DNA of 64,000 bases from Loktanella sp. PT4BL (GTDB lineage: Bacteria; Pseudomonadota; Alphaproteobacteria; Rhodobacterales; Rhodobacteraceae), in NCBI RefSeq assembly GCF_003201935.1, contig NZ_QJJL01000003.1:434001-498000 (forward strand), read 5' to 3'. The translations under genes and the position numbers were made by a program. The notes beneath the pieces were generated by a model. That model was not told the DNA's origin. It did no database searches and saw only the letters and a list, made by a program, of their open reading frames with translations. Shown in pieces: positions 50,665 through 53,887 of the stretch. Position 1 is the first letter of the stretch, and every line of letters starts with the position of its first letter.

Positions 50665-51762
50665 ATGGGTTTCAAGATGGGTATTGTGGGTTTGCCGAAT
50701 GTGGGCAAATCGACCTTGTTTAATGCGCTGACCAAGACGGCGGCGGCGCAGGCGGCCAATTTCCCGTTCTGTACGATTGAACCCAATGTCGGCGATGTGG
50801 CGGTGCCTGATGCGCGGCTGGACAAGCTGGCGGCGATTGCCTCGTCCAAGCAGATCATTCCAACGCGCATGACATTCGTGGATATCGCGGGTCTGGTGAA
50901 AGGTGCCAGCAAGGGCGAGGGTCTGGGCAACCAGTTTCTGGCCAATATCCGTGAGTGCGATGCCATCGCCCATGTGCTGCGCTGTTTCGAGGACGACGAT
51001 ATCACCCATGTCGAGGGCCGCGTTGACCCTGTCGAAGATGCCGAAGTGATCGAGACCGAATTGATGCTGGCCGATCTGGAAAGCATTGAAAAGCGTTTGC
51101 AGAACCTCGTGCGCAAAGTACGTGGCGGCGACAAAGAGGCGGTCCAGCAGGTGCGCCTGCTGGAAATGGCGCAGGCGGCGTTGGAAGACGGCAAACCCGC
51201 CCGCACCGTTGATGTGGACCCCGATGACGCCAAGCAATGGAAAATGCTGCAACTGCTGACGACCAAGCCGGTGCTTTATGTCTGCAACGTCGAAGAAGAC
51301 AGCGCAGGCAAAGGCAACAGCCAGTCCGCCCGCGTCGCTGAAATGGCCGCAGCACAGGGCAATTCCCATGTGGTGATCTCGGCCCGTATCGAGGAAGAGA
51401 TCAGCCAGCTGGACCCCGAAGAGGCCGCCATGTTCCTTGAGGAAATGGGGCTGGAAGAGGCCGGTCTCGACCGGTTGATCCGCGCAGGCTATGAACTCTT
51501 GCACCTGCAGACCTATTTCACCGTTGGCCCCAAAGAGGCACGCGCTTGGACGATCAAGGAAGGCACCTCAGCCCCGCAAGCCGCCGGTGTGATCCATGGC
51601 GACTTTGAACGCGGCTTTATCCGTGCCGAAACCATCGCCTATGATGATTTTGTGACGTTGGGTGGTGAACAGGCGGCCAAAGAGGCGGGCAAGATGCGCG
51701 CCGAGGGCAAGGCCTATATCGTCAAGGACGGCGATGTGATGCACTTCCTGTTCAACACCTAA
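50665..51762 (+). CDS. ychF: Redox-regulated ATPase/GTPase YchF
   Basis: A 365-residue OBG-family P-loop protein. G1 is GLPNVGKST (Gly9-Thr17), switch [20 protein letters not shown] is near residue 72, and a C-terminal TGS domain is present. YchF (OLA1) prefers ATP and associates with ribosomes. ATG 50665 is used in place of the GTG at 50662, with AGGAG upstream. Its 3' end overlaps the convergent DUF4130 gene by 4 bases. Confidence 0.95.
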
Positions 51763-52589
51763 TCCCTGCCGCGCAACTGCCGTTTGATCTTGGCCACCCG
51801 TTCGGGCGGCAAGGTGGGCGCGGCATCGCGCATCTGCTGCACTTTCGCTTCTGCCCCTGCGATCAGGTCGTGGATATGCTGCGCTTCGGGCAGGTTTTTC
51901 CAGTATTTCCTGGGCATCTCTGATGTCATCGCGCTGACCTTCAGGCGTGCGGGATTGAAGATATTGCAGAAATACGTCCCCCAGAGCGCCTCGGTCGCAT
52001 CCTCGGGCAGGTCCGGTTTGGGTTGGCCGGGGTGAAAGGTCAGGTTGCCGTCAATGAACTGCGCGGTCACGTCGGGTGTGGCGATCATCCAGTCCATATC
52101 GGCAAAGCGGCGTGCGAAGAACGGCGCTGTCGGTTCCACCGTATGGTGGGTGGGTTCAAACCACGCGGCAAAGCTGCGCCGCGCGCCGCCCTGACGCAGA
52201 TCGCGAAAGCGCACAAACGCCTTCATCTTGTGTTTGCAGCGATGCACGCCCTTTTCCATCTGGCGCAATTTGGCCAAGTCTGCATCGGCGCGATCCTGCA
52301 TGAGGCCCGGCTGATGGCGCAGCCGCCACAGCATCGCATAGAGCCGTGCGAAACGCTGGGGGTCTTTGTGCCAGACCACCCAGTTGGCCATTTCCACAAA
52401 GCTTTGCGGGGCCTTGATCCGCCGTGTCACGGGCGGCAGAGGCGTGTCGATGGCAAATAGCTCACCCATTTCGTTGTCGAAATCCCACAGTATATCCTCG
52501 GGCGACACGCCCGCGCCAATCAGGCGTTTGGCGGCGTCGCGCCAAGCAATATCTGTGCCGATGCGGGGCAGGGGAACGGTATACATCAA
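51759..52589 (-). CDS. DUF4130 protein partnered with radical SAM (TIGR03915 type)
   Basis: A 276-residue protein of the DUF4130 family, normally found alone or fused to UdgX uracil-DNA glycosylase. Recognisable blocks are [16 protein letters not shown] (residues about 115-130), [27 protein letters not shown] and [19 protein letters not shown]. Partner genes of this family are radical-SAM proteins annotated as putative DNA repair. No UDG domain is fused here. It overlaps the upstream radical-SAM gene by 4 bases, so the two are translationally coupled. Confidence 0.82.
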
Positions 52590-53821
52590 AAAAGGCTCAA
52601 CTGTTCGGGGGGTGGGGCAAAACGGGCGCGCAGGTCTGCGCTGTCGGTCAGGCCGCCCGGTGTCCAGTCCTGGGCGACAATAAAGGCTTGCGCCTTTTTC
52701 AGCGATGCCCCCATGCGCAACAGATCATCATAACGCAGCCTGCGGTGCCTCCGGGTGGAAAGGATGCGCCCCACAGTGCGGGTACCGAAGCCCGGTACGC
52801 GGAGCAGCATTTCCTTGCTGGCGCGGTTCACATCCACCGGAAACAGCGCGCGGTTCTGCAAGGCCCAGGCGAGCTTGGGGTCAATGTCCAGATCAAGGTT
52901 GCCATCGGGGCGGGCGGCAGTGATCTCATCCACGCCAAAGCCGTAAAACCGCAGGAGCCAATCGGCCTGATAAAGCCGGTGTTCGCGCGCCAAAGGCGGT
53001 TTGATCAAGGGCAGTTTCGCGGTGGCATCAGGGATCGGCGAAAAGGCGGAATAATAGACGCGCTTCAGTTTGTAATCGCCATATAGCATCGTTGACTGCC
53101 CGAGGATCGTGGCATCAGTGGAGCCGTCCGCGCCGACGATCATTTGCGTGGACTGGCCCGCTGGCACAAAGCGTTTGCCACGTTTGCCGGTATAGCTGCG
53201 CTCGCTTGCCACATCCTTGCGCGATTTCACATCGCCCATCGCCTTGCGGATCGTCGCGGGGTTTTTCTCGGGCGCATAGGCTTTGACGCTTTGGTCCGTG
53301 GGCAATTCGACGTTGATTGACAGACGGTCGGCGTATAGCCCTGCCTCTTCGATCAGTTCGGGGGCGGCATCGGGAATGGTTTTCAGGTGGATATAGCCGC
53401 GAAAATTCTCGACCTCACGCAGGCGTTTGGCGATGCGCAGCATGTCGTCCATGGTTTTATCCGGCGACTGTATGATGCCCGAGGACAGGAACAGCCCTTC
53501 GATATAATTGCGGCGATAGAATTCGATGGTCAGTTGCACCACCTCGTCAGGTGAAAACCGCGCCCGCTGGACGTTGGATGACACCCGATTGACGCAATAG
53601 GCGCAATCATAGATGCAGAAATTCGTCATCAGGATTTTCAGCAAACTGATGCAGCGCCCGTCGGGGGCGTAGGCATGACAGATGCCCGACCCTTCGGTTG
53701 AGCCTAACCCTTTGCCATCACGGCTATCACGGCGCGTGGTTCCGCTGGACGCGCAAGAGGCGTCATAGCGGGCGGCGTCACTGAGAATCGCAAGCTTTTG
53801 TGAGAGATCAAGACGGGACAT
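52586..53821 (-). CDS. Putative DNA modification/repair radical SAM protein (TIGR03916 type)
   Basis: A 411-residue radical-SAM enzyme. The 4Fe-4S motif is CIYDCAYC (Cys69-x3-Cys73-x2-Cys76). A helix-hairpin-helix-like segment VNRASKEMLLRVPGFGTRTVGRIL in the C-terminal part (about residues 333-355) suggests DNA binding. The start is unusual: no Shine-Dalgarno is present, and a LexA-type GTTC-N7-GTTC box lies only 2 bases upstream of the ATG. It is operonic with the DUF4130 gene. Confidence 0.85.
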   Translation of the reverse strand: MSRLDLSQKLAILSDAARYDASCASSGTTRRDSRDGKGLGSTEGSGICHAYAPDGRCISLLKILMTNFCIYDCAYCVNRVSSNVQRARFSPDEVVQLTIEFYRRNYIEGLFLSSGIIQSPDKTMDDMLRIAKRLREVENFRGYIHLKTIPDAAPELIEEAGLYADRLSINVELPTDQSVKAYAPEKNPATIRKAMGDVKSRKDVASERSYTGKRGKRFVPAGQSTQMIVGADGSTDATILGQSTMLYGDYKLKRVYYSAFSPIPDATAKLPLIKPPLAREHRLYQADWLLRFYGFGVDEITAARPDGNLDLDIDPKLAWALQNRALFPVDVNRASKEMLLRVPGFGTRTVGRILSTRRHRRLRYDDLLRMGASLKKAQAFIVAQDWTPGGLTDSADLRARFAPPPEQLSLF

Positions 53822-53823
53822 AT

Positions 53824-53838
53824 GTTCATGTTATGTTC
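53824..53838. promoter_or_regulatory. LexA (SOS) box, GTTC-N7-GTTC
   Basis: GTTCATGTTATGTTC matches the direct-repeat LexA consensus of Alphaproteobacteria exactly. It abuts the start of the radical-SAM gene, a position where LexA would block initiation, so the operon is predicted to be DNA-damage inducible. Confidence 0.75.
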
Positions 53839-53887
53839 TCAATTTCACGCAGACAAGGGCAATGTCACTAGCGCGGCACTTTGGCTT

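What the first reader, a model, noticed from the sequence alone, without database searches (positions are those of the whole stretch)
51759..53838. SOS-controlled radical-SAM/DUF4130 operon
A perfect GTTC-N7-GTTC direct repeat (53824-53838) sits 2 bases from the start of a two-gene operon made of a radical-SAM enzyme (Cys69/73/76, C-terminal HhH-like segment) and a DUF4130 protein. Established: this direct repeat is the alphaproteobacterial LexA box, and these families are annotated only as putative DNA repair. Inference: the pair is an SOS-induced repair module, and the DUF4130 protein lacks the usual UDG fusion, so it may act on a different lesion.
Basis: partly seen in the sequence, partly recalled or inferred. 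Interest (0 to 1): 0.75.

Follow-up and report, generated by a model that had tools for sequence, protein, structure and literature searches.

The report
SOS-box radical-SAM DNA repair pair
In this marine bacterium a two-gene unit, predicted to repair damaged DNA, carries two bases before its start codon the sequence to which the SOS repressor LexA likely binds; nearly all close relatives examined carry the same switch near the same place and many more distant ones carry their own lineage's version, so the pair is likely an old part of the bacterial DNA-damage response whose target lesion is still unknown.

Summary
GTTC-N7-GTTC (53824-53838) lies 2 nt before the ATG of a radical-SAM gene (TIGR03916) that overlaps a DUF4130 gene (TIGR03915). 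The bare motif is not beyond chance (2 in the window, 1.77 expected); its place is: 76 of 78 named orthologues carry it, 58 of 76 at exactly 2 nt. In a second, partly overlapping set, 77 of 78 alphaproteobacterial loci have the GTTC box, and 19 of 29 loci of other Pseudomonadota have the E. coli-type CTGT-N8-ACAG box instead. The same genome has such boxes before lexA, recA and mmcB. SOS control of a UDG-radical-SAM operon is already published. Three things add to it: (1) operator, -10 element and start codon form one fixed unit, which predicts a leaderless mRNA; (2) three further cysteines (23, 48, 57) are invariant in 95 of 95 aligned homologues, suggesting a second Fe-S cluster; (3) the usual fusion partner, UdgX, is missing here, in three other branches of the tree and from 16 of 29 non-alpha loci, while the gene pair remains. 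The core is probably radical SAM plus DUF4130. That it acts on a different lesion is not supported; the lesion is unknown.

The parts
52586..53821 (-). radical-SAM gene, 411 aa, TIGR03916 (rSAM_link_UDG)
51759..52586 (-). DUF4130 gene, 275 aa from ATG 52586, TIGR03915/PF13566, no UdgX domain
53824..53838 (.). predicted LexA operator GTTCATGTTATGTTC (GAACATAACATGAAC on the coding strand)
   Evidence: conserved in 76 of 78 orthologues
53851..53856 (-). predicted -35 element TTGTCT, 18 nt before the box
   Evidence: TTG at this offset in 51 of 76 orthologues against a mean of 1.47 at 57 other offsets; not flagged by the generic scan
53828..53833 (-). predicted -10 element TAACAT inside the operator, 17 nt from the -35
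   Evidence: TAnnnT here in 47 of 76
53819..53821 (-). ATG, also the predicted transcription start (leaderless mRNA); inference from spacing
52584..52588 (-). TGATG stop/start overlap of the two genes (likely translational coupling)
53594..53617 (-). CX3CX2C radical-SAM motif, Cys69/73/76
   Evidence: invariant in 95 of 95
53651..53755 (-). second invariant cysteine set Cys23/48/57 (predicted auxiliary Fe-S cluster)
   Evidence: 95 of 95
52748..52837 (-). HhH-like segment, residues 329-358 (below cut-off)

Best explanation
This is a two-gene operon, radical-SAM enzyme TIGR03916 plus DUF4130 protein TIGR03915, that is likely repressed by LexA and induced by DNA damage, and whose products would then work together as a DNA-lesion repair pair with the radical-SAM protein as the predicted catalyst. 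Predicted switch: LexA sits on the box that contains the -10 element, and when RecA triggers LexA cleavage the promoter fires with the A of the ATG as first base, giving a leaderless mRNA for both coupled genes. Predicted chemistry: the CX3CX2C cluster makes the 5'-deoxyadenosyl radical, a second cluster on Cys23/48/57 supports turnover (as in radical-SAM enzymes with auxiliary clusters), the C-terminal HhH-like part holds DNA, and DUF4130 is the usual DNA-handling partner. UdgX, a uracil/AP-site trap found with DUF4130 in most of the alphaproteobacterial loci examined, is an optional add-on that this lineage has apparently lost. Shown: gene identities, box, its conservation and spacing, the change of operator between lineages, cysteine invariance, scattered absence of UdgX. 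Inferred: LexA binding, induction, leaderless start, second cluster, DNA as substrate, direction of the UdgX changes, lesion type.
For: Families. Box in 76 of 78 named orthologues (80 fetched, 2 without upstream DNA), 2 nt from ATG in 58, 3 nt in 10, 4 nt in 3, 6 nt in 5. TTG at -18 in 51 of 76, TAnnnT in the box in 47 of 76, SD-like motif between box and start in 2 of 76. Phylum test: 84 of 398 genomes have TIGR03916 above cut-off; with the family set, 107 loci: GTTC-type box in 77 of 78 alpha and 0 of 29 others; CTGT-N8-ACAG in 19 of 29 others and 1 of 78 alpha; shuffles 25 of 7800 and 2 of 2900; reversed GTTC pattern 2 of 78 and 0 of 29, reversed CTGT pattern 0 of 107. This set shares some species with the named one. 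Boxes of the same type precede lexA, recA, an mmcB-like gene, two umuD-like genes, pdeM, a PA0069-type radical-SAM gene and an imuA-like gene, 8 of the 42 boxes whose surroundings were fetched. Six invariant Cys, 95 of 95. The UdgX-less state needs 4 changes on the tree. DUF4130 model pLDDT 94.4.
Against: No binding, expression or enzyme data were produced here. Two of 78 orthologues lack the exact box; 10 of 29 non-alpha loci lack the exact CTGT box, 5 of them with one mismatch and 5 with nothing recognisable. The 2-nt spacing is not universal: in one alpha family the box lies about 90-100 nt upstream. The generic promoter scan did not report the predicted promoter (8 of 12 by my count, its limit is 9). 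Residues 44-51 are modelled with pLDDT under 50, so cluster geometry is untested. HhH is below cut-off. Two of 55 alpha loci show no DUF4130 in the fetched stretch. Loci were found by their radical-SAM gene, so cases where UdgX or DUF4130 stayed and the radical-SAM gene was lost would not be seen; this weakens the core-versus-accessory reading.
Confidence: 0.7

Rival explanations
1. The module is at heart a uracil/AP-site repair pathway: radical SAM and DUF4130 assist UdgX, and in this lineage another UDG of the genome replaces UdgX in trans.
For: UdgX-like sequence lies in 49 of 55 alpha loci, fused to DUF4130 where checked by profile (L016, L056); the genome keeps a family-4 UDG, an Ung and a third UDG-fold protein; published work calls the COG1573-COG4277 operon a putative base excision repair system (PMC8565304).
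Against: UdgX-less pairs stand in four places of the orthologue tree and make up 16 of 29 non-alpha loci; the three UDGs found here are not UdgX above cut-off. The sampling was by radical-SAM gene, so the reverse loss would be missed.
Confidence: 0.2
2. The operon is SOS-controlled but modifies rather than repairs: it alters bases in DNA or RNA during stress (for example to allow bypass or to mark DNA).
For: Folds near the radical-SAM model include RNA-modifying MiaB and RlmN along with LIAS, HydE and biotin synthase; NCBI names the family 'putative DNA modification/repair'.
Against: Frequent co-occurrence with UdgX and an HhH-like tail point to damaged DNA. The neighbouring genes of the window were read by eye only and show no modification system to me.
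Confidence: 0.15
3. The GTTC repeat is a chance match and the operon is not under LexA.
For: The pattern is no commoner than expected in the window and rarer than its reversed control in the genome.
Against: Conservation and place in 76 of 78 orthologues and the change to the CTGT box in other classes.
Confidence: 0.03
4. The pair is an anti-phage defence system switched on by damage.
For: Patchy distribution: 26 of 149 genomes of the family above cut-off; matches in 158 plasmid records.
Against: No PADLOC or PHROGs family matched at E <= 0.001.
Confidence: 0.03

Closest known systems
COG1573-COG4277 (UDG-radical SAM) SOS operon of Bacteroidetes, reported also for Verrucomicrobia and Alphaproteobacteria (PMC8565304; passages seen)
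   Same: Same radical-SAM family (that COG4277 corresponds to TIGR03916 is recalled, no call shows it) under LexA
   Different: Here no UDG/UdgX is present; the second gene is DUF4130 alone; the operator differs from those found in Bacteroidetes
TIGR03916 / TIGR03915 / TIGR03914 (radical SAM, DUF4130, UdgX) gene set of NCBIfam
   Same: Window proteins are clear members of the first two
   Different: The third (UdgX) is missing
splB genes under LexA in Alpha- and Betaproteobacteria (PMC3323433; passages seen)
   Same: Radical-SAM gene with a LexA box; this genome has a separate boxed radical-SAM gene of PA0069 type (L127, NF033668)
   Different: A separate family; the window protein hits only TIGR03916 in NCBIfam at E <= 0.001
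Lipoyl synthase and other radical-SAM enzymes with auxiliary clusters
   Different: HydE and biotin synthase score equally; Cys spacing differs from that of lipoyl synthase (CX4CX5C, recalled)

Membership tests
TIGR03916 radical SAM | Score above curated cut-off | tested here: met
   580.5 against 343.5 bits
TIGR03916 radical SAM | CX3CX2C cluster motif | tested here: met
   Cys69/73/76, 95 of 95
TIGR03916 radical SAM | Helix-hairpin-helix DNA-binding tail | tested here: inconclusive
   PF12836 20.7 bits, cut-off 27
TIGR03916 radical SAM | Radical cleavage of SAM and activity on DNA | not testable with these tools
   needs enzyme assay
TIGR03915 / DUF4130 | Score above curated cut-off | tested here: met
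   201.3 against 112.25 bits; PF13566 129.9 against 27
UdgX (TIGR03914) | UdgX domain C-terminal to DUF4130 | tested here: not met
   no TIGR03914 match in the window protein; only a 40-residue match by tblastn at the DUF4130 end; no UdgX above cut-off among the genome's three UDG-fold proteins
LexA regulon (alphaproteobacterial) | GTTC-N7-GTTC at the promoter, conserved in orthologues | tested here: met
   76 of 78; 77 of 78 alpha loci
LexA regulon (alphaproteobacterial) | lexA and recA present and themselves boxed in the genome | tested here: met
   L129 TIGR00498, L128 TIGR02012 with boxes
LexA regulon (alphaproteobacterial) | LexA binding and induction by damage | not testable with these tools
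   needs EMSA or ChIP and RNA-seq
DHH/DHHA1 phosphoesterases (RecJ, Cdc45, NrnA) | Shared fold with DUF4130 | tested here: inconclusive
DHH/DHHA1 phosphoesterases (RecJ, Cdc45, NrnA) | DHH motif and sequence kinship | tested here: not met
   no DHH in the 275-aa sequence; hhalign against 30 RecJ proteins probability 0.4, reversed control 0.1
Radical SAM with auxiliary Fe-S cluster | Extra conserved cysteines | tested here: met
   Cys23/48/57 in 95 of 95; a distant relative (L275, Gemmatirosa, 38% identical, not shown to be TIGR03916) lacks all three together
Radical SAM with auxiliary Fe-S cluster | Cysteines brought together around a cluster | tested here: inconclusive
   residues 44-51 under pLDDT 50; coordinates not available to me
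Anti-phage defence | Match to a PADLOC model | tested here: not met
   0 families at E <= 0.001

The most novel reading that the evidence does not exclude
The radical-SAM/DUF4130 pair is the core of an unrecognised class of direct DNA-lesion repair: a two-cluster radical-SAM enzyme that works on damaged DNA with a partner of RecJ-like fold without its metal site, wired into SOS under at least two unrelated LexA operators, with UdgX only an accessory that captures by-products.
Probability: 0.22. Interest if true: 0.8.

Novelty: new member of a known kind. Interest (0 to 1): 0.45.

Why it matters
DUF4130 is a domain of unknown function, and the physiological role of UdgX is stated to be largely unknown (PMC10359453, one passage). 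The comparison separates a likely core (radical SAM plus DUF4130) from a likely accessory (UdgX) and points to natural UdgX-less strains with a clean promoter in which the core activity can be measured alone. That the operon carries different LexA boxes in different lineages makes a role in damage response very likely and tells which damage screens to run. The fused operator, -10 and start codon is a compact SOS promoter design that can be tested by mapping one transcript end.

Tried and rejected
Chance motif: rejected for place and conservation, although bare counts are not enriched. Generic promoter/terminator scan: no promoter reported at the predicted site; its three terminator-like sites are on the plus strand, 2.5 expected. 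RecJ/DHH kinship of DUF4130: the structure list is dominated by DHH proteins and several DHH names appear in the viral library, but scores lie in the range of no clear match and profile comparison found nothing; kept only as a lead. Solved structures by sequence: none at E <= 0.01 for the radical-SAM profile; for DUF4130 one ribosomal protein at E 0.28, taken as chance. Spore photoproduct lyase is not among the 50 rows shown, which does not exclude it. Xanthomonas-type box (recalled pattern): found in 0 of 107 loci. Phage carriage: 10 'phage' records matched; the annotated one looked at (L277) has glyQ and glyS beside it and is probably bacterial. Papers: the Caulobacter SOS regulon paper of 2008 and the Verrucomicrobia LexA paper of 2016 are not held, so SOS control in those groups rests on PMC8565304's statement. 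DUF4130 occurs in 1 held paper and COG4277 in 1; no functional study of the pair showed in the listings, which is not proof that none exists. PMC10776899 and PMC10359453 on UdgX: term searches for radical, operon, DUF and SOS found nothing.

Rows dropped before counts: L018 and L070 from the box test and the tree (no upstream DNA, or a partial gene); L043, L044, L088 from the UdgX counts (contig ends). L078 is a long, half-filled row of the tree; leaving it out did not change the 4 changes. A1 holds the window and 112 loci, picked by me from a list of 149 non-redundant entries out of 182 (malformed entries and some near relatives left out); A2 holds the window and all 94 non-redundant entries out of 186. 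Of the 98 genome boxes I fetched the surroundings of 42, mostly with A/T-rich spacers, besides the two in the window. The 80 named loci are the best 80 of 581 found, so they lean to close relatives.
Full report
What is there. On the minus strand, 52586-53821 encodes a 411-aa radical-SAM protein and 51759-52586 a 275-aa DUF4130 protein; stop and start overlap as TGATG. NCBIfam places them above curated cut-offs in TIGR03916 (580.5 bits) and TIGR03915 (201.3 bits); Pfam gives Radical_SAM, DUF4130 and a sub-threshold helix-hairpin-helix. The best named relative is Yoonia maricola, 95% identical in the radical-SAM protein, so the genome is taken as a Yoonia-like alphaproteobacterium; its record is unnamed. 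GTTCATGTTATGTTC at 53824-53838 ends 2 nt before the ATG.

Is the box more than chance? As a bare pattern it is not: 2 in the window, 1.77 expected, and 98 in the genome against 166 for the reversed pattern. Position and conservation decide. Of 80 named orthologue loci (the best 80 of 581), 78 have upstream DNA; 76 carry the exact box within 45 nt, read as GAAC-N7-GAAC on the coding strand, 58 at 2 nt, 10 at 3, 3 at 4 and 5 at 6 nt from the ATG. The two misses are L039 and L074 (L074 has one changed base, read). Controls: 10 of 1105 other ORFs of at least 150 aa in the same loci have a box in the same span, 9 of these 10 being the radical-SAM upstream region seen from other ORFs, and 28 of 15600 shuffles do. 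Between 19 and 40 nt before the box no position has a base above 60%, so the box is not simply carried along with unchanged DNA.

A fixed promoter. Anchored on the box, a TTG starts 18 nt upstream in 51 of 76 loci against a mean of 1.47 at 57 other offsets, and TAnnnT lies inside the box in 47 of 76. This looks like a sigma-70 promoter with a 17-nt spacer whose -10 element is the box's own spacer; the transcription start would fall on the ATG (inference). Only 2 of 76 have a Shine-Dalgarno-like motif between box and start. In the window the elements are TTGTCT (53856-53851) and TAACAT (53833-53828); the generic scan, which asks for 9 of 12 matches, did not report them. In three non-alpha loci (L228, L234, L236) a GGAG lies between box and start (read by eye).

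The LexA regulon of this genome. I fetched the surroundings of 42 of the 98 boxes, mostly A/T-rich ones. Eight precede recognisable SOS-type genes: lexA (TIGR00498), recA (TIGR02012), an mmcB-like gene (PF06319), two umuD-like genes (below NCBIfam's cut-off, Peptidase_S24 above Pfam's), pdeM (TIGR04123), a PA0069-type radical-SAM gene (NF033668) and an imuA-like gene (weak: 31.8 bits against a cut-off of 150). The other 34 were not assigned to SOS genes. The motif is the published alphaproteobacterial LexA motif (PMC8565304, passages; PMC12700426, passages).

Across the phylum. TIGR03916 is above cut-off in 26 of 149 genomes of the family and 84 of 398 of the phylum. Of the 107 distinct loci from both searches, some of them species already in the named set, 77 of 78 alpha loci have the GTTC-type box between 120 nt before and 15 nt after the start of the match, and 0 of 29 others do; 19 of 29 others have CTGT-N8-ACAG, the box type of E. 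coli and most beta- and gammaproteobacteria (PMC3323433, passages; the first half of the motif is recalled), and 1 of 78 alpha loci does. Shuffles gave 25 of 7800 and 2 of 2900; reversed patterns gave 2 of 107 (GTTC type) and 0 of 107 (CTGT type). Of the 10 misses outside Alphaproteobacteria, 5 have CTGT-N8-CCAG (read by eye) and 5 have nothing recognisable. The 2-nt spacing is common but not universal; in one alpha family the box is about 90-100 nt upstream. Two unrelated operators before the same operon are hard to explain other than by selection for SOS control.

UdgX. The usual fusion partner is UdgX (TIGR03914), not an ordinary UDG. In the 80 named loci it is present in 66, absent in 11 (8 of the Yoonia group, L047, L052, L087) and unknown in 3 at contig ends. 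On a tree of 79 radical-SAM proteins the UdgX-less state needs 4 changes (76 rows counted, 11 without UdgX); that these are losses is inferred from the prevalence of UdgX around them. The protein search shows the state mixed even near the window: of the closest 30 hits to its DUF4130 protein, 26 lack and 4 (P0023, P0024, P0029, P0030; 76-85% identical) have the UDG domain. In the phylum set 49 of 55 alpha loci have UdgX (3 lack it, 1 cut, 2 without DUF4130 nearby), but only 11 of 29 others (16 lack it, 2 cut). DUF4130 without UdgX is therefore a common form. All the loci were found by their radical-SAM gene, so loss of that gene with UdgX kept would not be seen. The genome's three UDG-fold proteins are a family-4 UDG, an Ung and a weak match; none is UdgX above cut-off. 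A KRRIH-like loop (K[RK]R[IVL]H) is present in 49 of 64 long downstream ORFs.

What was known. PMC8565304 (passages) lists a UDG-COG4277 two-gene operon in LexA networks of Bacteroidetes and says that its SOS regulation was reported in Verrucomicrobia and Alphaproteobacteria. PMC3765255 (passages) calls DUF4130 a predicted mutagenesis-related enzyme linked to SplB-like radical SAM and UDGs. Hence SOS control as such is not new. I saw no statement of the fused promoter-operator-start, the second cysteine set or the scattered absence of UdgX in the passages and listings named above; those searches are limited to open papers.

Verdict. Observation confirmed; SOS control very likely (about 0.95), a DNA-repair role likely (about 0.75), target lesion unknown. 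'A different lesion' is not supported.

Noticed in passing
L130 1528-1822 (G000:C2:872427): A box identical to the radical-SAM one lies 19 nt before an 87-aa ORF with two Cys pairs and, on the other side, 134 nt before a gene that looks like lepA by eye; a candidate small SOS protein with no family above cut-off.
   Followed up: partly
L126 1512-1526: Box GAACATTATGAGAAC 178 nt before a 109-aa ORF with no family match.
   Followed up: partly
L196, L197, L201 upstream of the radical-SAM gene: Three genomes of one genus lack the LexA boxes tested but share an inverted repeat around GTCTCATCCAATGAGAC just before the gene; a possible operator of another regulator (by eye).
   Followed up: no
L194, L199: Boxed radical-SAM genes without DUF4130 in the fetched stretch; the radical-SAM protein may work alone or with a distant partner.
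   Followed up: no
L134 1513-1527: A gene that looks like a Tad-pilus gene by eye has a GTTC-type box, in line with predicted pilus boxes in Dinoroseobacter shibae.
   Followed up: no
L138, L141 (contigs C10, C16): Two umuD-like genes with boxes 16 nt upstream on small contigs, perhaps plasmids.
   Followed up: partly
L277: Record named Acinetobacter phage MD-2021a carries the radical-SAM gene and a 'probable DNA metabolism protein' beside glyQ and glyS; probably a bacterial contig.
   Followed up: partly
window 51759-51762: The DUF4130 gene and the convergent gene (YchF-like GTPase by eye) overlap by 4 nt at their ends, so no room is left for a UdgX domain; in Y. maricola other ORFs lie between.
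   Followed up: partly
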